From NCBI GenBank assembly GCA_003223555.1, contig QHVM01000033.1, forward strand, positions 3,008 to 43,432: a stretch of 40,425 nucleotides of DNA, read 5' to 3'. Made by a program: the position numbers and the translations under genes. Shown piece by piece: positions 529 to 9,968 of this stretch. The notes below the pieces were generated by a model. It had not been told where the DNA came from. It ran no database searches and saw nothing but the letters and a program-made list of their open reading frames with translations. The stretch is from Acidobacteriota bacterium (lineage in GTDB: Bacteria; Acidobacteriota; Vicinamibacteria; Fen-336). Each line of letters opens with the position of its first letter. Within the stretch, counting starts at the first letter, position 1.

Positions 529-1457
529 CGCTCGATCGGCTCCCGGCCGCACGCCACGCAGAGAACATGCGGCCAGGGTCCAAACCGCTCGCTGGTACGA
601 TAGGCGTGCAGCAGACCACGTGCATCGACATCCTTGTGGTAAGCCGCGCGACGGGTTGCCTCTCGCGAATGATCCACGACCCAGATGCGATAGCCGAGTG
701 ATTCGAGGCCCGACAGGATCCTCGTCGGAGAATCGCCGAGCTCCGAGAGTTGCTGCGGATGAAGCTCCAAGAGCAACCGGTGAATCCGGTGCGTCGCGAG
801 TGACTTGCTGAGACCCTTTAGGGCGAAACCCTCGCCTCCCTCGATGTCGACCTTTAGCAGATCGACCGAGGACAGACCGAACCGATCCAGAAGCCCATCG
901 AGAGGCTCGCCCACCACTTCGAAATGCTCGCCCTCAGACGAGGCCTGGGCCACCTGTCGCGTGAGCCCGAAGTTCCCAGCGTCTTCGTCGTAGCCCCGCA
1001 GCAGGATGCGAGCGTGCTGCGCACTCGCGGCAACCTGGAGCGCAAGGACAGTAGTGAGCCCATTGCGGGCGAGGTTCCGCTCGAGCACCGGGAAGATCCT
1101 CGGGTCCGGCTCGAGGCCGACCACTCGGCCCCTTTCCCCCACGAGCCAGGCCGCCAGCAACGTGAAGTAACCCCAGTTCGCCCCCACGTCGACGAAGCTC
1201 ATTCCAGGCCGCAGGATGGTTCGGACGAGGGCCGTCTCTTGTGGTTCATAGCGTCCGGTAAAGCAGACCTCGCGGGCGATTGCGTCCCGAGGGTCGCACT
1301 CGAACCAATACCCGCCGGCATTCCACGGCAGGCGCATCAGAAACGGCTGAAGCCCTCGGCAGGGAAGCCAGTCGATCGCGCGATACCGTCCTGCCGGTAG
1401 GATCCGAAGCGTCTGAGCGGCGAGGCGGACCCAGAGTGGAGCCACCTCGTGGATCAT
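525..1457 (-). CDS. FkbM-family SAM-dependent methyltransferase
   Basis: A 310-residue protein. The SAM-binding motif VDVGANWGYFT lies at about residues 89-99, followed by the acidic strand end VVGLEPDP and the later motif LLKVDIEGGEG, a pattern typical of FkbM methyltransferases. Such enzymes O-methylate sugars or other small acceptors and are common in glycan clusters, so methylation of the polysaccharide made by this locus is likely (inference). The frame is open further upstream to 1682, but that part overlaps the divergent glycosyltransferase gene. I chose ATG at 1457, which begins MIHEVAPLWV. The gene is followed with a 4-base overlap by the membrane protein at 1-528. GC is about 60 %, unlike the next gene to the right. 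Confidence 0.85.
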   Translation of the reverse strand: MIHEVAPLWVRLAAQTLRILPAGRYRAIDWLPCRGLQPFLMRLPWNAGGYWFECDPRDAIAREVCFTGRYEPQETALVRTILRPGMSFVDVGANWGYFTLLAAWLVGERGRVVGLEPDPRIFPVLERNLARNGLTTVLALQVAASAQHARILLRGYDEDAGNFGLTRQVAQASSEGEHFEVVGEPLDGLLDRFGLSSVDLLKVDIEGGEGFALKGLSKSLATHRIHRLLLELHPQQLSELGDSPTRILSGLESLGYRIWVVDHSREATRRAAYHKDVDARGLLHAYRTSERFGPWPHVLCVACGREPIER

Positions 1458-1542
1458 GGGGGCTGGTTCTGGTCTGGAACCCGGTCGCGCCGGGGGGAGC
1501 TTGCTCTGCGGTTGGCCTTCCGGGTGCAGGGACGGGCCCAGC

Positions 1543-3411
1543 ATGCGCAATGATAGAGCAGTTGACCGAGAAACGCCGACGAGATTAGTCTCGAGCCGCA
1601 CCGGAGGGCTCAGCGTTGGCGAACGAGAAGGCATCCTAACCACGGCCGGCGGGCCCGCCCTGCGCGTCCTGCACGTCGGCAAGTTCTACCCGCCGGCCCG
1701 GGGCGGGATGGAGCGCATGCTCCAGGTCCTGGCCGAGGACGAGCATCGCGCGGTGGATACCGAAGTGCTGGTCGCCAATGTGAGGCCGCGCACAACCCGG
1801 GAGGTCTGCGGCAACGTGCCGGTGACGCGGGTGGCCAGCTTCGGCTCGGTCGGCACCGTCGGTGTCTGCCCGACCTTCCCGCTCTGGCTGCGCCGGCTGG
1901 CCGGCGACGTGGTCGTCCTCCACGAGCCGAACCCGTTGGCCTTCGCCTCGTACCTGCTGGCCCGCCCCCGCGGCAAGCTGGTCGTGTGGTTCCACAGCCA
2001 GCTCATCCTGCACCGCTGGTACTACTTCATGTACCAGCCGCTGGCCCGCCTGGCCCTGCGGCGGGCCGAGCGGGTGATCGTCTCCTCGCCCGCCCTGGCC
2101 GCCCAGGCCCCCGAGCTGCAGGCCATCCGCGGCAAGTGCGAGGTGATCCCCTTCGGCATCGATCCCTCGCCCTGGACGCCCACCGGCGCGGTCAGGCAGC
2201 AGGCCGACGAGCTGCGCCGGCGCCATGGCACGCCGCTCGTGCTCTTCATCGGGCGCATGGTTCCCTACAAGGGCGTCGACGTGCTCCTGCGCGCCCTGGT
2301 CGGGTTGACCGGTACGACGCTGCTCGTCGGCCGCGGCCCGCTGCTCGAGGAGATGCGCGCCCTGGCCGGGGAGCTGGGCCTCGCGGACCGGGTGGTATTC
2401 GTCGAGGAGCTCGACGACGCTCAGATGGCGGCCGCCTATCACGCCTGCGACGTCTTCGTGCTTCCCTCGGTCGGCACCAACGAGACCTTCGGCATCGTCC
2501 AGCTCGAGGCGATGGCCTGCGGCAAGCCGGTCGTGAGCACGCAGCTCCCCACCGGCGTCCCGTGGGTGAACCGCCACGGCGAGAGCGGGCTGGTCGTGCC
2601 GCCCGGCGACGTGGCAGCGCTGCACGACGCGCTCGACCGGCTCCTCGGCGACCGCGCGCTGCGGACGAGGCTCGGCGAGCAGGGCCGCCGCCGCGTGCTC
2701 AGCGAGTTCACCGTCGAGCGCATGGTCGGGCGCACGGTGGCCCTCTACCAGGAGGTGGCCGGGCCGCCGGGGGCGAGAACCGGGAAGCCCCGGCGGGAGC
2801 CGGCCGCCAAGCGCCTCCTCGACGCGCTTCTCGCGGGGACGGGCCTCCTCCTCTCGAGCCCGCTGTGGCTGCTCTTCGCCCTCGCCATCAAGCTCGACGA
2901 CGGCGGCCCGGTCTTCTACGCCCAGGACCGCGTGGGACGGGATGGGCGGCGCTTCAAGAGCCGGAAGTTCCGATCGATGGTCCCCGACGCGGACCGGCGC
3001 TTCGGCCCCCTCCAGGCCGCCCACGTGGATCCGCGCGTCACCCGCGTGGGCCGTATCCTGCGCGGCACCGCCCTCGACGAGCTGCCGCAGCTCTGGAACA
3101 TCTTCGTCGGCGACATGAGCTTCGTCGGGCCGCGGGCCCTGATGCCGCAGGAGATCGAGCGGAGCGCGACCGGCGAGCCGGTGCCGATCGAGGAGATCGA
3201 GGGCTACGAGGCCCGCCACCAGGTCCGGCCCGGGCTGACCGGCATCGCCCAGGTCTACGCGGACCGCGACATCCCGCGGCGGCAGAAGTTCAAGTACGAC
3301 GTCCTGTACATCCGCAAGCAGAGCTTCGGCCTGGACCTCCGGCTCATCGCGCTGTCGTTCTGGATCACCTTCCGCGGCAAGTGGGAGCATCGCGGCGGGC
3401 GCAAGTTCTAG
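1543..3411 (+). CDS. GT4 glycosyltransferase fused to bacterial sugar transferase (phosphoglycosyl transferase)
   Basis: A 622-residue two-domain protein. Residues ~45-410 form a GT-B glycosyltransferase of family 4: N-terminal VGKFYPPARGGMERM, and the E-x7-E region NETFGIVQLEAMACGKPVV. Residues ~420-622 form a WcaJ/PglC-type phosphoglycosyl transferase: membrane segment LLDALLAGTGLLLSSPLWLL, basic KSRKFRSM, and the catalytic Asp-Glu in LDELPQLWNIFVGDMSFVGPRA. The second domain should load the first sugar phosphate onto undecaprenyl phosphate, and the first domain add a later sugar; doing both in one chain is inference. Start: ATG 1543 is the only reasonable start before the conserved GT4 strand, although about 40 residues precede the strand and are poorly constrained. 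It is divergent from the FkbM gene. Confidence 0.88.
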   Translation: MRNDRAVDRETPTRLVSSRTGGLSVGEREGILTTAGGPALRVLHVGKFYPPARGGMERMLQVLAEDEHRAVDTEVLVANVRPRTTREVCGNVPVTRVASFGSVGTVGVCPTFPLWLRRLAGDVVVLHEPNPLAFASYLLARPRGKLVVWFHSQLILHRWYYFMYQPLARLALRRAERVIVSSPALAAQAPELQAIRGKCEVIPFGIDPSPWTPTGAVRQQADELRRRHGTPLVLFIGRMVPYKGVDVLLRALVGLTGTTLLVGRGPLLEEMRALAGELGLADRVVFVEELDDAQMAAAYHACDVFVLPSVGTNETFGIVQLEAMACGKPVVSTQLPTGVPWVNRHGESGLVVPPGDVAALHDALDRLLGDRALRTRLGEQGRRRVLSEFTVERMVGRTVALYQEVAGPPGARTGKPRREPAAKRLLDALLAGTGLLLSSPLWLLFALAIKLDDGGPVFYAQDRVGRDGRRFKSRKFRSMVPDADRRFGPLQAAHVDPRVTRVGRILRGTALDELPQLWNIFVGDMSFVGPRALMPQEIERSATGEPVPIEEIEGYEARHQVRPGLTGIAQVYADRDIPRRQKFKYDVLYIRKQSFGLDLRLIALSFWITFRGKWEHRGGRKF

Positions 3412-3447: not shown

Positions 3448-4611
3448 GTGATCGACGTTGCCGTCGTCGGCGCCGGACCGGCCGGCCTGCTCGCCGCCGC
3501 CCACCTCGCCCGGTCCGGGCTCGACGTCCTGCTCCTCGAGGATCATCCCCGGGTCGGAGAGCCCACCCACTGCACCGGGATCGTCTCGCTGGAGACGGCC
3601 GATCTGACGGACATACCGGACGAGCTGGTCCTCGGCCGGCTCGCCCGGGCGCGCCTGGTGGCGCCGAACGGGGGCGAGGCCCGGCACGCCTGGCCCGCCG
3701 CGGGCAGCGACGCGATCCTGGCCATCGACCGCGCGGCCTTCGACCAGGGGCTGGCCCGCCGGGCGATCGATGCCGGCGCCTCGCTCCGCACCGGGACCGC
3801 GGTGCGGGACGTCCAGCTCGCGGCCGACGGTGTCGACCTGCGCACCGGGGCGGGGCCCGTTCGGGCCAGGGCCTGCGTGCTGGCCTGCGGGGTCTCGTAC
3901 CGCTTCCAGCGGCAGCTCGGGCTCGGCCTGCCCGGCCAGGCGATCCACACCGCGCAGACCGAGGCCGATGCCACGCCCGGCGACGTGGTGGAGCTGCACT
4001 TCGGGCGGCAGGTCGCGCCGAACGGCTTCGCGTGGACGGTGCCGGTCGTCCGCGGGGGCCGCCACCGGCTCAAGGTCGGCGTGATGGCCATGGGCGACGC
4101 GGGAGCGTATCTCGACGCCTTCCTCGAGCGGCCGCCGCTCCGCGCGCGCGTGCAGGGCGAGCGGGCGCCGATCGTCCGGCGCCTGCTGCCGCTCCGGCCG
4201 ATCGCGAAGACGTACACCGACCGGGTCCTGGTCGTGGGCGACGCCGGCGGGTTCACCAAGCCCACCACCGGCGGCGGCATCTTCTACAGCCTGCTCACCG
4301 CCTCGCTGGCCGCCGAGACGCTGGCCGAGGCCTTCGCGGCCGGCCGGCTCGACGACGCCTTCCTGGCCCGTTACGAGCACCGCTGGCAGGCGCGGCTGGG
4401 GGCGGACCTGCGGGTGGCGGACTGGCTGCGCCAGTTCGTCACCAAGTGCTCGGACGCCGAGATCGACCTGCTGGTGCGGGCGATGGACTCGGAGGACGTC
4501 CAGGAGCTGGTCCAGCGGACGGCCCGCTTCAACTGGCACCACGACGTGATCGTCGCGCTGGCCCGCCAGCCGGGCATCGCCACGCTCATCTTCCGCACGC
4601 TGTTCCGCTAG
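3448..4611 (+). CDS. Geranylgeranyl reductase-family FAD-dependent oxidoreductase
   Basis: A 387-residue flavoprotein with an N-terminal Rossmann dinucleotide fold (VAVVGAGPAGLLAAAHLARSG, residues ~4-24). It has the family motif GEPTHCTGIVS at ~38-48, and the second FAD motif VVGDAGGFTKPTTGGGIFYS at ~260-280. These match the geranylgeranyl reductase family, which saturates isoprenoid double bonds (archaeal lipids, chlorophyll side chains, menaquinone), and related flavoenzymes. The substrate cannot be told from sequence. Reduction of a polyprenyl carrier or quinone is possible. Its place inside a polysaccharide locus, 36 bases after the sugar transferase gene, may hint at a lipid-carrier role, but it has its own -10 box. 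GTG start is fixed by the TATAAT just upstream. Convergent with the barrel gene. Confidence 0.82.
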   Translation: MIDVAVVGAGPAGLLAAAHLARSGLDVLLLEDHPRVGEPTHCTGIVSLETADLTDIPDELVLGRLARARLVAPNGGEARHAWPAAGSDAILAIDRAAFDQGLARRAIDAGASLRTGTAVRDVQLAADGVDLRTGAGPVRARACVLACGVSYRFQRQLGLGLPGQAIHTAQTEADATPGDVVELHFGRQVAPNGFAWTVPVVRGGRHRLKVGVMAMGDAGAYLDAFLERPPLRARVQGERAPIVRRLLPLRPIAKTYTDRVLVVGDAGGFTKPTTGGGIFYSLLTASLAAETLAEAFAAGRLDDAFLARYEHRWQARLGADLRVADWLRQFVTKCSDAEIDLLVRAMDSEDVQELVQRTARFNWHHDVIVALARQPGIATLIFRTLFR

Positions 4612-4641: not shown

Positions 4642-5886
4642 TCACGGCACCAGCTCGCCCTGGATCCCGTAGCGGAGGCCTTGATAGGAGAAGCTCGGGA
4701 AGTCGCTCACCCGGCGCGCCCACTGGAGGGTGCCCCCCAGGCGTATCCCGGCCCGGAAGCTCCGCAGGAGGCTGATCCCTCCCGTCCAGAGGTGATCGAC
4801 GCGGGGGGCGAAGGCGGAGCCGACGGGATAGGGCAGCAGGTACCTGGCCTCTTCGAAGCCGAAGCTGCCCCGGCCGATGAGCGCGAAGGGCAGGCCCACC
4901 GCCGCCTCGCCCCCGAAGCGGGTGGAGACGTAGGTGTTGCGGAAGAGGCTGCTGCGCAGCGGCGTCGGCGTGAGGGCGAAGTAGATGTCCCGCTCGCCCA
5001 CCGCGGTCACGAGGCCGTAGCGCAGGAAGGGAAACGACAGCGACGTCGCCAGGCTGGGGCCGCGGTAGCGGGGGGTGGAGCCCGAGACCGGGAACTCCCG
5101 GACGCCGGCCAGCAGCCGCCCGCGCACGATCGCCTTCGCGCCGAACTCGAAACCGCCCAGGTACCGGTACGAGCGCGTGAGGCGCGAGGTCACGCGGGAC
5201 AGGCGCAGGAAGCGGTCTTCGATCGTGTCGGCCGAGGCCACGAAGCTCGTGCGCCGGCTGAAGGCGTAGCGGAGCTGGGCGGTGCCGGTCAGCTCGTCGC
5301 GGTCCAGGCTCTGCTTGACGTTCACGTCCGCGATGGCGAGGCTGGCGAACTCGGAGATCCGGCTCGTCCCGGAGAGCGTGGCCGACACGCGCCGGGTGGG
5401 AGCCAGCGTCACTCCGACCGAGCCCCACCGCTCGTGGCGCAGCACGCGCTGGTCGATGTCGATCGTGAAGCGCTGGCGGTACTGGCCGCCGCCGCCGGCG
5501 CCGAAGAACGTGAAGGGGCCCACGTCCACCTCGGCCCGGCCTTCCCCCCCGAAGTCGGTGGAGCGCTCGCTGCTCTGGCGCCGGAAGTAGTTGAGGTCCA
5601 GGTTGCCCGCGCCGGTGAGGCGCAGCCGGCGGCCCACGGGCATCGCGGCGAGCATGGTCGGGCTGAGGACCACCGACGTGTCGGGGATCTCCCCGGTCCG
5701 CTGGTTGAAGACGTTGGTGTCGACGCCGGCGTTCTTGAGCTGGAGCTTGGGCGTGAGGTAGACGGGGCCGACCCGGAACCGGCCCGGCCGCTTCTTCTTC
5801 TCCTTCTCGGCGGCGGGGGCCGGGGCGGCCGAGGCGGCGCTCAGCACGAGGACGGCCGCCAGCAGCGGCCACACCGGGCCGGTCAC
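4642..5886 (-). CDS. Outer-membrane beta-barrel protein of exopolysaccharide locus
   Basis: A 414-residue protein from GTG 5886, whose start overlaps the stop of the PKD lipoprotein gene (GTGA). It opens with a signal peptide (WPLLAAVLVLSAASAAPAPAAE) and a lysine-rich patch. After that come many alternating amphipathic strands rich in Arg, Gly, Tyr and Phe, ending in a barrel-like C-terminus (GLRYGIQGELVP). The phrase VGPVYLTPKLQLKNAGVDTNVF is typical of outer-membrane barrels encoded in polysaccharide/exosortase loci. Likely role: outer-membrane pore or accessory for polysaccharide release, last gene of the wza-wzc-PKD-barrel set (inference). No enzymatic motif is seen. An upstream extension of the frame to 6090 exists but runs antiparallel to nothing conserved and is rejected. 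Confidence 0.75.
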   Translation of the reverse strand: MTGPVWPLLAAVLVLSAASAAPAPAAEKEKKKRPGRFRVGPVYLTPKLQLKNAGVDTNVFNQRTGEIPDTSVVLSPTMLAAMPVGRRLRLTGAGNLDLNYFRRQSSERSTDFGGEGRAEVDVGPFTFFGAGGGGQYRQRFTIDIDQRVLRHERWGSVGVTLAPTRRVSATLSGTSRISEFASLAIADVNVKQSLDRDELTGTAQLRYAFSRRTSFVASADTIEDRFLRLSRVTSRLTRSYRYLGGFEFGAKAIVRGRLLAGVREFPVSGSTPRYRGPSLATSLSFPFLRYGLVTAVGERDIYFALTPTPLRSSLFRNTYVSTRFGGEAAVGLPFALIGRGSFGFEEARYLLPYPVGSAFAPRVDHLWTGGISLLRSFRAGIRLGGTLQWARRVSDFPSFSYQGLRYGIQGELVP

Positions 5887-6287
5887 CGCGTGCAGGCCGC
5901 CGAGGTGGGCGGCGGCAGCTCGGTCACCCGCGCGGTCTGGGAGGCCGACGCCTTGGCGCCCTTGTCGTCGGTGACCGTGAGGAGCACGGTGTAGACGATC
6001 TCCAGGCAGGTGGCGGGCGTGTCGGGAAAGACGTGCGTGGTGGTGGGCGTGTTGCGGCTCTCCTCCGCGGTGCCGTCGCCGAAGTTCCACGTGTAGGAGA
6101 CGATCTGGCCGTCGGGGTCGGTGCTGCCGGAGGCGATGAAGGTCACCACCGTCTGGCCGGCGTTGATCGGGCTGACCGGGCTGTAGACGAACGAGGCCGT
6201 GGGCGGGACGTTGGGGATCTCGGGCAGCTTCTCGCAGCCCAGCGCGGCGAGAAGCGCCAGGGCGGCGAGGACGGCCCTACCGCGCAC
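5883..6287 (-). CDS. PKD-domain lipoprotein
   Basis: A 134-residue small lipoprotein. The signal sequence MRGRAVLAALALLAALGC ends in a lipobox with Cys18. Residues ~28-120 form one PKD (Ig-like) domain: PPTASFVYSPVSPINAGQ, GSTDPDGQIVSYTWNFGDG and YTVLLTVTDDKGAKAS. The start overlaps the last 11 bases of wzc and the end overlaps the barrel gene, so it is translationally tied to both. PKD domains mediate protein-protein or protein-glycan contacts outside the cytoplasm. Here it could brace the exporter between Wza and the barrel protein (inference). Its position inside the export operon is conserved only as far as this one window can show. Confidence 0.8.
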   Translation of the reverse strand: MRGRAVLAALALLAALGCEKLPEIPNVPPTASFVYSPVSPINAGQTVVTFIASGSTDPDGQIVSYTWNFGDGTAEESRNTPTTTHVFPDTPATCLEIVYTVLLTVTDDKGAKASASQTARVTELPPPTSAACTR

Positions 6288-8457
6288 TGCGCTTGTCCCC
6301 GATTCTCGCCACCTTGGAGCCGGCCACCGGACGGGACGGCGCGCTGCTGTAGTAGTGACCGTAGTAGTGCCCGTAGTAGCGGCCGTAGTAGTAGGAGTGC
6401 TTCTCGACCTGGGCGCGGTTCAGCACGACCCCCAGCAGCCTCGTCCCGGTCTCCCGCACGCGCTCCAGGGTCTGGCGCAGGCCGTTGCGGGGCACCATCT
6501 CCGCCCCCACCACCACCACGACGCCGTCGGTCAGCGGCGCGAGGATGAGCGCCTCGGCCACCGGGCCCACCGGCGGCGTGTCGAGGACGATCCAGTCGTA
6601 GAAGCCGCGCAGGCCGTCCAGGAAGTCCCGCATGGTCTGCAGGGTCATGAGGTCGGCCGGGCTGGGCGCCCGCGTGCCGGAGGCGAGCAGGCTGAGCGTG
6701 GTGCCGGCGGGGCGCTGGATGGCCTCCGAGGGTCGGGCCTGGCCCACCAGCAGGTCCGAGACTCCGGGTGACTTCCGGCCCCTCAGCAGCACGTGACTCT
6801 GCGGCCGCCTCAGGTCGCAGTCCACCAGCAGCACGCGGCCCCCCAGCGAGGCCAGGATGAGGGCGAGGTTGACCGAGGTCACCGTCTTGCCTTCCCCGGC
6901 CGAGGTGGAGGTCACGAGGAGGATGCGGGAGGCGGCCTCCGGCCACGAGTAACTGAGCGAGGTGCGCAGCAGGCGATATCCGTCGGCGAGCGGGCTCTCG
7001 ACCCCCGACTTGATGATGACCTCGGCCGGGTTGGCGATCTCGGGGATCACGGCCAAGAGCGGCGCGGCGAGCTGCTTGCGCACGTCCTCGGGGGTCTTGA
7101 TCGTGTTGTCCAGGTAGTCCAGGAAGAAGGCGAGCCCGATCCCCAAGGCCAGGCCGAGGAAGACCCCGTAGAGGATGTCCCGCGTCGTGCGGGGGCGGAC
7201 CGGACCGCGCGGCACGCTGGCCGGGTCCACGATGCGGATGTTCGAGTTCTTCAGTTCCTGGGCCACGTCGGTCTGCTTGTGGCGGGAGAGGAGGCTGTTG
7301 AGGACCTCCTTGCCCGCCTCCGCCTCGCGCTTCGCGGTGTCGTACTGGACGCTCCGCCGCGAGAGGTCGAGCGCCTCCGCCTTGGCCGCCTCCAGCGCCG
7401 AGGCCACGCTCGCCTCCTGGGCCGCGTAGGCCTTGTAGTCGTTCTCCGCCGCGCGGATCACCCGCTGGCTCTCGGCGGCGATCTTCTTCCTCGTCTCCTG
7501 GATCTGGTTGCGGACCTTCACCACCTCCGGGTGCTGGTCCATGTAGCGCTCGAGGAGCTGGGCCTGCTGGCGCTCGAGGCCGGCCAGCTCGATGCGGAGG
7601 GACTGGACGAGCGGGCTGCGCATGACCTCCGGCAGCTCCTCGGGGTTGGCGGCGCCGCGCATCTGGTTGTAGAGGGCTTCCCTCTCGAGCCGCTCGGTGC
7701 GCAGCGTCGTGAGAGAGGTCCCCAGCTCCTTGAGCTTCTGGTCGAGCAGCGTGCGCCGCTCCTCGATGTTGACGATGCCCTCCTGCTCCTTGACCTGCTG
7801 GAGGGCGCGCTCGGCCTGCTCCACCTTGCCCTTCTGCTCCTCGATCTGCTGGCCCAGCCACTGGGCGGCCTCCGACGAGGTCTGGTACCGGAACTCCAGC
7901 GTCTGCTCGATGTAGAGCTTGGACAGCCCGTTGGCCGCCGCGGCCGCCATCTCGGGACGGAACGACTCGTAGGAGACCATGACCAGCCGGCTGCTCTTGA
8001 TCGGGACGACCTTCAGCTTCCCGAGGAACTCGTCGATCGCCCTCTCCATGACCGCAGACGCGCCGGGAGAGGCCGCCTTGACGGCCTCGATCTCCTCCGC
8101 GCTGCGCGGCCCGCCGAACTCCGGGTCCTGGAGGAGGCTCATGCTCTCGATCACGCGGCGGACGAGGGCCCGGCTCTGGAGCAGCTTGTACTGGGTCTGG
8201 TAGTAGTCGTCGCGGGCGGCGTCCACCTGGGCCACTTCCTTGAAGGTCAGGACGCTGGGCGTGTCGCGCTCGATCAGGATCTGGGCGGACGCCTCGTAGA
8301 CCGGACGGGTGAGGAGCGAGCGGAACGTGGCCAGGGCGGCCACCCCGAGGAACACGGCGAGGACGAGCCGCCGGCGCCGGAGGATGACGTAGATGTATTC
8401 CCAGAGATGCGCTTCCTGGGGCTCGCCTTCGTAGCCGGAGGACGCGCTCGGGCTCAC
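6277..8457 (-). CDS. wzc: Wzz/GumC chain-length regulator fused to tyrosine autokinase (Wzc-type)
   Basis: A 726-residue inner-membrane co-polymerase. The N-terminal Wzz domain starts at the HLWEYIYVILRRRR stretch with a first membrane helix (LVLAVFLGVAALATF). A long coiled-coil periplasmic region follows, rich in Glu/Gln/Arg, then a second helix (ILYGVFLGLALGIGLAFFLDY). The C-terminal BY-kinase domain has Walker A SAGEGKT, Walker A' LLVDCDLRRP and Walker B WIVLDTPPV. The tail carries a run of nine tyrosines in YYYGRYYGHYYGHYY, the autophosphorylation cluster that controls polymer length. Start: GTG 8457 has AGAAGGCGAGG about 10 bases upstream and lies downstream of a good promoter (8539-8567). 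The frame opens to TTG 8562, but that codon would sit in the -35 region. Confidence 0.9.
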   Translation of the reverse strand: MSPSASSGYEGEPQEAHLWEYIYVILRRRRLVLAVFLGVAALATFRSLLTRPVYEASAQILIERDTPSVLTFKEVAQVDAARDDYYQTQYKLLQSRALVRRVIESMSLLQDPEFGGPRSAEEIEAVKAASPGASAVMERAIDEFLGKLKVVPIKSSRLVMVSYESFRPEMAAAAANGLSKLYIEQTLEFRYQTSSEAAQWLGQQIEEQKGKVEQAERALQQVKEQEGIVNIEERRTLLDQKLKELGTSLTTLRTERLEREALYNQMRGAANPEELPEVMRSPLVQSLRIELAGLERQQAQLLERYMDQHPEVVKVRNQIQETRKKIAAESQRVIRAAENDYKAYAAQEASVASALEAAKAEALDLSRRSVQYDTAKREAEAGKEVLNSLLSRHKQTDVAQELKNSNIRIVDPASVPRGPVRPRTTRDILYGVFLGLALGIGLAFFLDYLDNTIKTPEDVRKQLAAPLLAVIPEIANPAEVIIKSGVESPLADGYRLLRTSLSYSWPEAASRILLVTSTSAGEGKTVTSVNLALILASLGGRVLLVDCDLRRPQSHVLLRGRKSPGVSDLLVGQARPSEAIQRPAGTTLSLLASGTRAPSPADLMTLQTMRDFLDGLRGFYDWIVLDTPPVGPVAEALILAPLTDGVVVVVGAEMVPRNGLRQTLERVRETGTRLLGVVLNRAQVEKHSYYYGRYYGHYYGHYYSSAPSRPVAGSKVARIGDKRSAR

Positions 8458-8538
8458 GGCCGGAGAACCTCGCCTTCTCTCGCTCCGACTCGGTCCGGGC
8501 GGCCACGTCGGCGCCGGGCACCGGGAGGAAGAACGCAA

Positions 8539-8567
8539 ACGATACCCAAAAGAGTACGCCAAGTCAA
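8539..8567 (-). promoter_or_regulatory. Sigma70-type promoter of wzc
   Basis: Reading the minus strand, TTGACT (8562-8567) and TATCGT (8539-8544) are separated by exactly 17 bases. The start of transcription would be near 8532, giving a leader of about 75 bases before GTG 8457. A small hairpin (CGGCAG/CTGCCG arms, 8599-8616) lies upstream, between wza and this promoter, without a T-run. Confidence 0.6.
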
Positions 8568-8654
8568 AAGCGCGACTGATGGAAATTCAGCGCTGGAGCG
8601 GCAGAACCTCCTGCCGGCTCAACCTATGCTTTATTGGATGGGCAGCAAGACGCG

Positions 8655-9968
8655 CTAGAAGAGCTTCGATTTTACCACGATCGTGTCGCCGGGCTGGATG
8701 GGCTCGTCGATCTTGATCTTCAGCTCCCGGCTCTTGCCCTCGACTGCCCGCACCACTCGGATCCGGCCCGACGAGCCGTCCTCGGTGAAGCCGCCGGCCA
8801 GGCTGATGGCCTGGCGCACGGTCGTCCCCGGGGCGAAGGGATAGGCGCCGGGGTTGCGGACCTCGCCCGAGACGAATACCTTCGGGGCCTGGGGTACGAA
8901 GACTGTATCGTCCGGGCGCAGCAGGACGTTCTTGGTCAGGTCGCCGGCCTGGATGTCGCGCATGTTGACGCGGATGACCTCCGCCATGCCCGGCGCCTCG
9001 CCCGAGGAGGAGCCCTCGCCGACCTGGGTCGGCAGCACCGGGCCCTGGACCTCGCCGTGCGGGCGCACGATCACCACCTCGGAGCTGGCGTTGGCGGTGG
9101 CGGGACCGGCCCGCGCGAGCGCCTCCACGAGCGTGCGGTTGCCGGAGAGCGGATAGGTGCCCGGCCGGGTGATCTCGCCCACGACGAAGATGGTCTTGCT
9201 GCGGTACTCCTGGACCAGCACCGTGACCTGGGGGTTGCGGATGTATCCCTGGGAGAGCAGCACGGTGATCTTGCGCTCCAGCTCCTTCGGCGTCAGGTCC
9301 CCGCCCTTGACCCGCCCGATGAGGGGGAACATGAATGTGCCGTCGCTCTGGACGACGATGGTCTGGGTGAGGTCGTCGTGGCCGTAGACGGTGACCTTCA
9401 GGATGTCCTCGGGCCCGATCTGGTAGTCCGTCGTCGGAGGGGAGGCGGCGGGCGTCGCGGACGCAGGGGGGGCCGGGGTGTCGGCCCGGATGGCGCGGCC
9501 TCGCCCCGCGGCCGCGGGCGGACTCACCCTGGAAACGCCCTCGAACCCCTCGGGCTTCCGGATGGCGCCCGTGGAGAAGACCTCGACGTCACCCTGGTCG
9601 GCCGTGTCGGCCACGCCCTTGGCGGTCGGGCAGCTCCGGGCATCCCGCACGACCTTGCCCGTGATCTCGGACGTCTTGTTCGTCCGCCCATCACCCAGCA
9701 CCGCCTCGATGTAGTAGGTGATCGAGGCGGCGTTCTCCCTCGGCCGGGGCAGCAGGCCCACGAAGCGGCCGAGCCGGGACGTCATCTCCACGAAGTAGAA
9801 CTGGCCGTCGGCCGCCCCCTTGAAATAGACCCGCCCCCTCACCTGGTCCGCGGGCGTCAGCAGCGCCTCGATGCGAGGTGACCGGTCAGCCAGGAAGCAG
9901 GCCACCGGCGGGTGGTTGATCCGCACGGCGGCGGGAGCGGCCAGGAAGAGCAAGGCCAACGGCGCCAT
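8655..9968 (-). CDS. wza: Polysaccharide export outer-membrane protein (Wza-type) with N-terminal extension
   Basis: A 437-residue protein. Residues 1-15 form a hydrophobic signal-like segment. Residues ~20-110 hold an extra domain of strand-like sequence containing ITYYIEAVLGDGRTNKTSEI, followed by a Pro/Ala linker to ~180. The Poly_export domain begins at DYQIGPEDILKVTVYGHDDL (~181-200). Two SLBB domains follow at ~258-345 (VVGEITRPGTYPLSG) and ~355-437 (VSGEVRNPGAYPF). Wza forms the octameric channel through periplasm and outer membrane. Unlike classical Wza, no lipobox cysteine is visible near the signal peptide. First gene of the export set, followed by wzc after 197 bases. The ATG at 9968 lies 8 bases after an extended -10 box. 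Confidence 0.88.
   Translation of the reverse strand: MAPLALLFLAAPAAVRINHPPVACFLADRSPRIEALLTPADQVRGRVYFKGAADGQFYFVEMTSRLGRFVGLLPRPRENAASITYYIEAVLGDGRTNKTSEITGKVVRDARSCPTAKGVADTADQGDVEVFSTGAIRKPEGFEGVSRVSPPAAAGRGRAIRADTPAPPASATPAASPPTTDYQIGPEDILKVTVYGHDDLTQTIVVQSDGTFMFPLIGRVKGGDLTPKELERKITVLLSQGYIRNPQVTVLVQEYRSKTIFVVGEITRPGTYPLSGNRTLVEALARAGPATANASSEVVIVRPHGEVQGPVLPTQVGEGSSSGEAPGMAEVIRVNMRDIQAGDLTKNVLLRPDDTVFVPQAPKVFVSGEVRNPGAYPFAPGTTVRQAISLAGGFTEDGSSGRIRVVRAVEGKSRELKIKIDEPIQPGDTIVVKSKLF

What the first reader, a model, noticed from the sequence alone, without database searches (positions are those of the whole stretch)
4642..9968. Export set wza - wzc - PKD lipoprotein - outer-membrane barrel
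The two export genes are followed by a PKD-domain lipoprotein and a 414-residue barrel protein, the last three genes overlapping by 11 and 4 bases. Classical Wza already forms its own outer-membrane channel, so a dedicated barrel and an Ig-like lipoprotein suggest a modified exit route or a surface-anchoring complex. That the four act as one machine is inference from the gene overlap.
Basis: inference. Interest (0 to 1): 0.5.

Follow-up and report, generated by a model that had tools for sequence, protein, structure and literature searches.

The report
Composite polysaccharide exporter with Ig-like domain
A soil Acidobacteria genome carries a four-gene set that most likely pushes a sugar polymer out of the cell through a protein barrel, a route already known from other bacteria, but with an undescribed immunoglobulin-like module fused to the exporter.

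Summary
In detail: four minus-strand genes at 9968..4642, the last three overlapping by 11 and 4 bases. It has D1-D2-D2 (Poly_export, two SLBB) and no membrane-spanning helix; the barrel is modelled with 18 strands. This fits the composite OPX/beta-barrel translocon published in 2022 (EpsY/EpsX, Wzp). An OPX gene lies within 5 kb of the barrel in 26 of 36 loci; the PKD gene in 2 of 36. So 'one machine' is supported for OPX-Wzc-barrel; PKD is a local add-on of unknown role, and surface anchoring is unsupported. What is new is the OPX N-terminus: an Ig-like domain in no Pfam family, fused to OPX in 3 genomes and a separate gene beside Wzc in 8 others of the family. In a tree of 93 copies the fused ones form one clade inside a 24-row subclade, of which 22 sit at OPX, Wzc or Wzy genes, against 3 of 69 outside it. 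I read it as a periplasmic coupling module between chain assembly and exit (inferred). New variant of a known kind; interest 0.42.

The parts
8655..9968 (-). OPX (wza-like) gene, 437 aa: Ig-like N-terminal domain, Pro/Ala-rich linker, D1 (Poly_export), D2, second D2 (SLBB); no C-terminal D4 helix
   Evidence: Pfam; PDB sequence matches to Wza and short OPX proteins; alignments
9519..9926 (-). Ig-like domain of the OPX with its tail (residues 15-150), one conserved Cys pair, no Pfam family
   Evidence: Alignments; AlphaFold pLDDT 94.2; Ig-type fold matches; no Pfam hit at E 1
9213..9440 (-). D1, Poly_export domain (residues 177-252)
   Evidence: PF02563 E 1.1e-23
8895..9197 (-). D2, first SLBB domain (residues 258-358)
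   Evidence: PF22461
8658..8882 (-). second D2 (SLBB) domain, ends at the last strand; protein stops without a D4 helix
   Evidence: PF10531 residues 363-412; 21 of 22 OPX rows end at the same strand, the other stops earlier
6277..8457 (-). wzc-like polysaccharide co-polymerase with tyrosine autokinase domain, 726 aa, Tyr-rich tail
   Evidence: Wzz, GNVR, AAA_31; TIGR01007 over its cut-off; gene call
5883..6287 (-). PKD-domain protein, 134 aa, lipobox in this genome; local accessory gene
   Evidence: PF18911; distribution; dN/dS 0.14
4642..5886 (-). 18-stranded outer-membrane beta-barrel, 414 aa (BBP2_2-related), proposed exit channel
   Evidence: AlphaFold pLDDT 87.9, 18 long strands; porins and AlgE Z 16-18; relative passes PF10082
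1456..3411 (+). neighbouring glycosyltransferase (GT4) fused to a phosphoglycosyl transferase: polysaccharide context, not part of the export set
   Evidence: PF00534 + PF02397
525..1682 (-). neighbouring FkbM-type methyltransferase: polysaccharide context
   Evidence: PF05050 E 1.4e-19

Best explanation
This is a composite OPX/beta-barrel polysaccharide translocon of the D1D2D2 type. The Wzc-like co-polymerase in the inner membrane controls chain assembly and meets an OPX ring in the periplasm; because that OPX has no D4 helix, the 18-stranded barrel is the outer-membrane pore. The variant part is an Ig-like domain joined by a flexible linker to the OPX N-terminus. In relatives the same domain is a separate periplasmic protein with a C-terminal hydrophobic segment, encoded beside Wzc or Wzy. 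My reading is that it tethers or guides: it holds the chain, or the assembly complex, next to the OPX ring. The PKD protein is an optional add-on seen only in this genus. Shown by computation: gene order, domains, missing D4, barrel model, fusion, clade. Inferred: physical complex, pore function, role of the Ig-like domain. The confidence below is for the composite translocon; for the coupling role of the Ig-like domain it is about 0.3.
For: OPX is Poly_export + two SLBB with no Wza_C hit, and 22 of 22 aligned OPX rows have nothing after their last SLBB strand. None of the 4 OPX genes of this genome has a Wza_C hit (at E 0.1, at E 0.01), so no helical pore was seen in an assembly rated 98% complete. 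Barrel: 18 long strands, pLDDT 87.9; AlgE Z 16.0-17.6, rmsd 5.3-5.5 over 307-326 residues, best row 18.1. Linkage: OPX within 5 kb of the barrel in 26 of 36 loci; in G009 Wzc and barrel overlap directly by 4 bases. Ig-like domain: fused to OPX in G000, G001, G010; in 15 other loci its frame is within 200 bp of a Wzc frame on the same strand, 11 of them in 8 genomes of the own family. Tree of 93 copies: the 3 fused are one clade (99/81) in a 24-row subclade (98/93) with 13 Wzc-adjacent, 6 Wzy-adjacent and 2 other rows; outside it 3 of 69 are Wzc- or Wzy-adjacent. Published model: PMC9601211, PMC9603273.
Against: Full-length OPX (437 aa) is over the 280-aa limit used in PMC9601211 (261 aa from D1 on). 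The OPX has no lipobox, unlike EpsY. No test of interaction or of outer-membrane insertion. AlgE is no better than non-polysaccharide porins in the fold search, and the barrel has no sequence match in the PDB at E 10. G009 has the same OPX-Wzc-barrel order with no Ig-like domain on the OPX, so the domain is not essential to the set; most copies of the domain (68 of 93) are neither fused nor next to Wzc or Wzy, and 2 of the 24 rows of the export subclade (L178, L193) are not. 2 of 36 barrels lie away from OPX and Wzc without a near contig end (L043; L068, nearest Wzc 5 kb off).
Confidence: 0.8

Rival explanations
1. The OPX forms a pore on its own as E. coli Wza does, and the barrel is a Wzi-like surface lectin that anchors the polymer.
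For: Wzi is also an 18-stranded barrel (section 9 of PMC9603273; PMC3791409 seen in a search listing only).
Against: No D4 helix in this OPX or in any of 22 aligned rows and no Wza_C in the 4 OPX of the genome; no Wzi family among the Pfam hits of the barrel at E 0.1; no plug domain in the model, whose only low-confidence stretch is residues 1-32.
Confidence: 0.07
2. OPX, Wzc, PKD and barrel are a surface-anchoring complex in which a lipid-anchored PKD domain holds the polymer at the cell.
For: PKD gene inside the operon with 11- and 4-base overlaps, kept in G001 with dN/dS 0.14; lipoprotein partners of export barrels are known (GfcB with GfcD, passage in PMC9603273; PelC and AlgK, recalled).
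Against: Present in 2 of 36 barrel loci; no other PKD match in the 14 family genomes lies on a contig with a barrel match; lipobox not kept in G001.
Confidence: 0.08
3. The barrel is an ordinary porin that shares an operon with the export genes; the polymer leaves by another OPX or barrel of the genome.
For: Fold matches include many general porins; the genome has a second OPX-barrel pair on contig C65.
Against: Linkage of this barrel family to OPX in 26 of 36 loci; no Wza_C in the four OPX genes.
Confidence: 0.07
4. The Ig-like domain on the OPX is only a spacer or folding aid picked up from a large local family of secreted proteins, without a role in export.
For: 68 of 93 copies are neither fused nor next to Wzc or Wzy; absent from the G009 OPX.
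Against: The fused copies fall inside the one subclade in which 22 of 24 rows are at OPX, Wzc or Wzy genes, against 3 of 69 outside; the Cys pair and the LPRP core are kept in the fusion.
Confidence: 0.3

Closest known systems
EpsY/EpsX composite OPX/beta-barrel translocon of Myxococcus xanthus (PMC9601211)
   Same: OPX without D4, 18-stranded barrel encoded in the same cluster, Wzc-type PCP; D1D2D2 variants with barrels are described there
   Different: OPX here has an Ig-like N-terminal domain and no lipobox; a PKD gene lies between Wzc and barrel; phylum Acidobacteriota
Class 3 OPX with Wzp porin (PMC9603273)
   Same: Poly_export-SLBB only, barrel gene near it
   Different: Extra N-terminal domain; barrel is related to BBP2_2 (PF10082); its sequence relation to the myxobacterial Wzp was not tested
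AlgE, alginate export barrel
   Same: 18-stranded barrel, Z 16.0-17.6
   Different: Synthase-dependent pathway without OPX partner (recalled); predicted inward charges here are balanced, 18 K+R to 17 D+E
E. coli Wza-Wzc
   Same: D1 and D2 domains and PCP with kinase domain
   Different: No D4 helical pore; a barrel gene instead
Ig-type modules in the PDB: part of peptidylarginine deiminase PPAD, modules of GlgE and a GH5 mannanase, collagenase PKD domains
   Same: Fold of the OPX N-terminal domain, Z 7.8-10.4, rmsd 2.0-3.6
   Different: No clear sequence relation (9-21% identity in those rows); that the PPAD part is called Ig-like is recalled; a shared fold shows no function

Membership tests
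Composite OPX/beta-barrel translocon (PMC9601211) | OPX with Poly_export (PES, D1) | tested here: met
   PF02563 83.6 bits, cut-off 28
Composite OPX/beta-barrel translocon (PMC9601211) | D1D2 or D1D2D2 architecture | tested here: met
   One Poly_export and two SLBB stretches
Composite OPX/beta-barrel translocon (PMC9601211) | No C-terminal D4 helix | tested here: met
   No Wza_C hit at E 0.1; sequence stops at the last SLBB strand; the OPX core was not modelled here
Composite OPX/beta-barrel translocon (PMC9601211) | Outer-membrane barrel, 18 strands, within five genes of the OPX | tested here: met
   18 long strands, pLDDT 87.9; third gene after the OPX; localisation itself not tested
Composite OPX/beta-barrel translocon (PMC9601211) | Polysaccharide gene within five genes | tested here: met
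   Wzz domain in the next gene; GT/PGT and FkbM genes nearby
   437 aa; 261 aa from D1 to the end, the excess is the N-terminal domain and linker. Hence 'variant', not plain member
Composite OPX/beta-barrel translocon (PMC9601211) | OPX and barrel stabilise and bind each other | not testable with these tools
   needs protein work
Class 3 OPX (PMC9603273) | Poly_export-SLBB(1-7), no Wza_C, no GfcC | tested here: met
Class 1 OPX (classical Wza) | C-terminal Wza_C helix | tested here: not met
BBP2_2 (PF10082) | Score over the curated cut-off | tested here: inconclusive
   window barrel not listed at E 0.1; G009 relative over the cut-off, 34.1 against 23.7 bits, G010 relative below, 15.5
Wzi lectin | Wzi family match and plug | tested here: inconclusive
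   no Wzi family among the Pfam hits at E 0.1, no plug domain in the model; Wzi not among the 50 fold rows shown, which excludes nothing

The most novel reading that the evidence does not exclude
An undescribed Ig-like domain family of one Acidobacteriota lineage has a branch that is a periplasmic coupling factor of Wzx/Wzy-type polysaccharide assembly: as a membrane-anchored protein it sits with Wzy or Wzc, and once it was fused to the OPX, its C-terminal hydrophobic segment being replaced by the OPX core. The fusion would then point to a physical contact between chain assembly in the inner membrane and the exit ring, made by a third protein that textbook systems lack.
Probability: 0.3. Interest if true: 0.6.

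Novelty: new variant of a known kind. Interest (0 to 1): 0.42.

Why it matters
It also gives a concrete lead: a lineage-specific Ig-like domain whose one subclade is tied to OPX, Wzc and Wzy genes, and whose fusion to the OPX suggests where in the periplasm it works. How growing chains are handed from the inner-membrane assembly complex to an OPX without a pore is, as far as I know (recalled), open.

Tried and rejected
Classical Wza pore: rejected, no D4. Wzi-like anchor: disfavoured, not excluded. PKD as a core part: rejected by distribution. 11 of 14 family genomes hold some PKD match; of the regions fetched five hold it in other proteins away from export genes (L139, L143-L146); in L140-L142 no called gene scored, so three matches of G004 were not placed; the remaining matches were not fetched, but none is on a contig with a barrel match. 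Electropositive, AlgE-like lumen: not found; inward charges are balanced, so I make no claim about polymer charge. In one search the outward face of each strand was chosen as the more hydrophobic one, so its contrast (69 of 126 against 28 of 124 hydrophobic) is partly by construction and I do not use it as evidence. Sequence search of the barrel in the PDB: nothing at E 10. Genome-contig scan with the barrel alone: nothing. PgaA (4y25) is at rank 13 of Foldseek but not in the 50 rows; Wzi in neither list, which excludes nothing. Literature, listings only: 'PKD domain' with 'polysaccharide export' and 'lipoprotein' gave two genome papers; OPX with 'immunoglobulin-like' and Wza with 'Ig-like domain' gave none; searches list nothing whose title or abstract start speaks of such a domain. 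The two key papers hold no 'PKD', 'Ig-like' or 'polycystic'. These searches cover open PMC papers only.

Limits: the gene caller was my own codon-score script, trained on six window genes; starts in relatives are rough. The OPX and barrel profiles were built from rows of the same loci. The barrel model rests on 24 rows, the Ig-like model on 19. A first tree of 50 of 51 copies had a 16-row export subclade with all 16 at polysaccharide genes; after the report was held back I fetched the rest of the class copies, and the larger tree gives 22 of 24, which replaces it. In it 5 of 98 copies under 100 residues were dropped, few columns carry many rows, and L113-L115, L178 and L202 have long branches. 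Wzy neighbours were judged by similarity to five proteins with a Pfam Wzy_C hit; Pfam itself was run on those beside L100, L105, L154 (second copy) and L149. Gene neighbourhood was seen only within the fetched stretches. dN/dS is a simple count on one pair of genomes.
Full report
WHAT IS THERE. Four genes lie head to tail on the minus strand, 9968..4642. First an OPX (wza-like) gene, 437 aa, with Poly_export and two SLBB domains. Then a wzc-like co-polymerase with tyrosine autokinase domain (Wzz, GNVR, AAA_31), a 134-aa PKD protein, and a 414-aa barrel. The neighbourhood is polysaccharide synthesis: an FkbM methyltransferase and a GT4/phosphoglycosyl-transferase fusion in the window, and two more glycosyltransferases in the 3 kb of the contig before it. 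In the related genomes G001 and G010 the barrel gene is followed at once by a WecA-type gene (PF00953); here a convergent oxidoreductase stands there instead.

WHICH ORGANISM. A further hit is named Vicinamibacteria (L119). So the window is from an Acidobacteriota genome, perhaps Vicinamibacteria, probably from soil (inference from the record titles, which give a sampling depth in cm).

THE OPX HAS NO PORE OF ITS OWN. The protein ends at the last strand of the second SLBB domain. In an alignment of 22 OPX proteins, 21 end at the same strand and one stops one domain earlier; none has a D4 extension. Pfam shows no Wza_C at E 0.1, and the other three OPX genes of this genome show none at E 0.01. 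This is the class 3 or D1D2D2 type of PMC9603273 (seen: abstract, sections 6 and 9, passages) and PMC9601211 (seen: abstract, sections 8, 10, 11, 12, passages). PMC9601211 reports for EpsY/EpsX mutual stabilisation and pull-down, and 453 OPX of at most 280 aa with a coupled barrel and no helix.

THE BARREL. AlphaFold on 24 aligned relatives gives pLDDT 87.9, pTM 0.83 and 18 long strands. In the second look by VIA-align the rows within 1 Z of the best (18.1) are a BenF-like porin, MOMP, AlgE, Occ porins and maltoporin; AlgE scores Z 16.0-17.6 with rmsd 5.3-5.5 over 307-326 residues. PMC9601211 names AlgE as the nearest structure to EpsX. No Pfam family reaches its cut-off for the window's protein, but the G009 relative is BBP2_2. 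A profile finds the family in 86 of 193 genomes of the class, own included.

GENE ORDER IN RELATIVES. The barrel search gave 36 places in 29 of 60 genomes, own included (regions fetched). In one search an OPX lies within 5 kb in 26 of 36. Of the other ten, two have Wzc beside the barrel (L065, L066), six lie within 2 kb of a contig end (L038, L045, L046, L062, L063, L067), and two are apart (L043; L068, whose nearest Wzc is 5 kb off). With about four OPX genes per 5-Mb genome, chance would give less than one in 36 (my estimate). Two orders occur: OPX-Wzc-barrel (G000, G001, G009, G010) and mostly barrel-OPX-Wzc (others). In G009 Wzc and barrel overlap directly by four bases, with no PKD gene between.

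THE PKD PROTEIN IS LOCAL. It lies in the cluster in 2 of 36 barrel loci, own genome and G001. Of 14 family genomes 11 hold some PKD match; those that could be placed are in other proteins, and none but the two is on a contig with a barrel match. Between G000 and G001 it is a constrained gene (dN/dS 0.14; an 11-base overlap possible in both), but its lipobox is not kept. Lipid anchoring is thus uncertain, and its role is unknown.

THE NEW PART: AN IG-LIKE DOMAIN ON THE OPX. Residues 15 to about 115 (with a tail to 150) form a domain with no Pfam match. It is modelled at pLDDT 94.2 as a beta sandwich. The best fold matches are a part of peptidylarginine deiminase PPAD (Z 10.4, rmsd 2.3, 92 residues) and modules of carbohydrate-active enzymes (GlgE, a GH5 mannanase, a cycloalternan-degrading enzyme, CbhA; Z 8.0-9.7), then PKD and antibody domains: a common fold, which shows no function. 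Two Cys and an LPRP core are kept among close relatives. The same domain heads the OPX in G001 and G010, not in G009. Elsewhere it is in a separate protein: in 15 loci its open frame lies within 200 bp of a Wzc frame on the same strand; 11 of these are in 8 genomes of the own family, 2 in family f2, 1 in f10 and 1 in another family of the phylum. In the 13 separate copies checked from the export subclade a hydrophobic segment follows the domain (mean hydropathy 1.73-2.45); in the three fusions it does not (0.88-1.36), the linker and OPX stand there instead.

DISTRIBUTION AND TREE. The domain is in 21 of 193 class genomes: all 14 of the own family, 3 of family f2, 4 of f10; and in 9 of 247 genomes drawn over the phylum, by an earlier and narrower profile. 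The fetched loci hold 98 copies; 93 of at least 100 residues went into a tree. The three fused copies are one side of a branch (99/81; 200 of 200 bootstrap trees). They lie in a subclade of 24 rows (98/93): 3 fused, 13 Wzc-adjacent, 6 Wzy-adjacent, 2 neither (L178, L193). Of the 69 rows outside, 3 are Wzc- or Wzy-adjacent (L115, L163, L187). A single fusion of an assembly-linked protein to the OPX is the simplest account.

HOW IT PROBABLY WORKS. Wzc and Wzy build the chain; the D1-D2-D2 ring takes it across the periplasm; the barrel lets it out. The Ig-like domain, on a flexible linker at the N-terminus of each OPX subunit, could bind the chain or the assembly complex. In relatives the same service would be given by the separate anchored protein. 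The first part rests on the published model plus the tests above (0.8); the second is inference from fusion, neighbourhood and tree (0.3, left as it was after the larger tree).

VERDICT. Ordinary in its core, a new variant at its edge.

Noticed in passing
window 1456-3411 (+): One frame joins a GT4 glycosyltransferase to a bacterial sugar transferase (phosphoglycosyl transferase), Pfam PF00534 and PF02397.
   Followed up: no
L100, L105, L154 (two copies), L115, last residues of the Ig-like proteins: The C-terminus ends in SPSR or SPSRP behind a hydrophobic segment, in four copies near Wzy genes and in one Wzc-adjacent copy from another family of the phylum. Could be a sorting or contact motif.
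   Followed up: partly
L071 8160-10723 (own genome, contig C65): A second OPX next to a BBP2_2-type barrel protein of 544 aa in the same genome: a second composite pair.
   Followed up: partly
L073 2142-3638 (contig stretch before the window): Region between glycosyltransferase genes carries undetermined bases and two overlapping frames; the longer frame has no Pfam hit at E 0.001: perhaps a Wzy-like gene in poor assembly.
   Followed up: no
L103 6119-9610: One open frame of 1163 aa joins the Ig-like domain, a PKD-like stretch and a permease-like multi-pass part (the last two by eye): odd fusion or assembly error.
   Followed up: no
window 3448-4611 (+) against L035 11131-12672 and L037 7095-8633: The gene behind the barrel is a WecA-type transferase in G001 and G010 but a convergent FAD oxidoreductase here, so the operon is cut short in this genome.
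   Followed up: partly
L109 5057-9293: Three tandem Ig-like-domain genes in G005, two of them with a like C-terminal region: local expansion of the family outside export loci.
   Followed up: no
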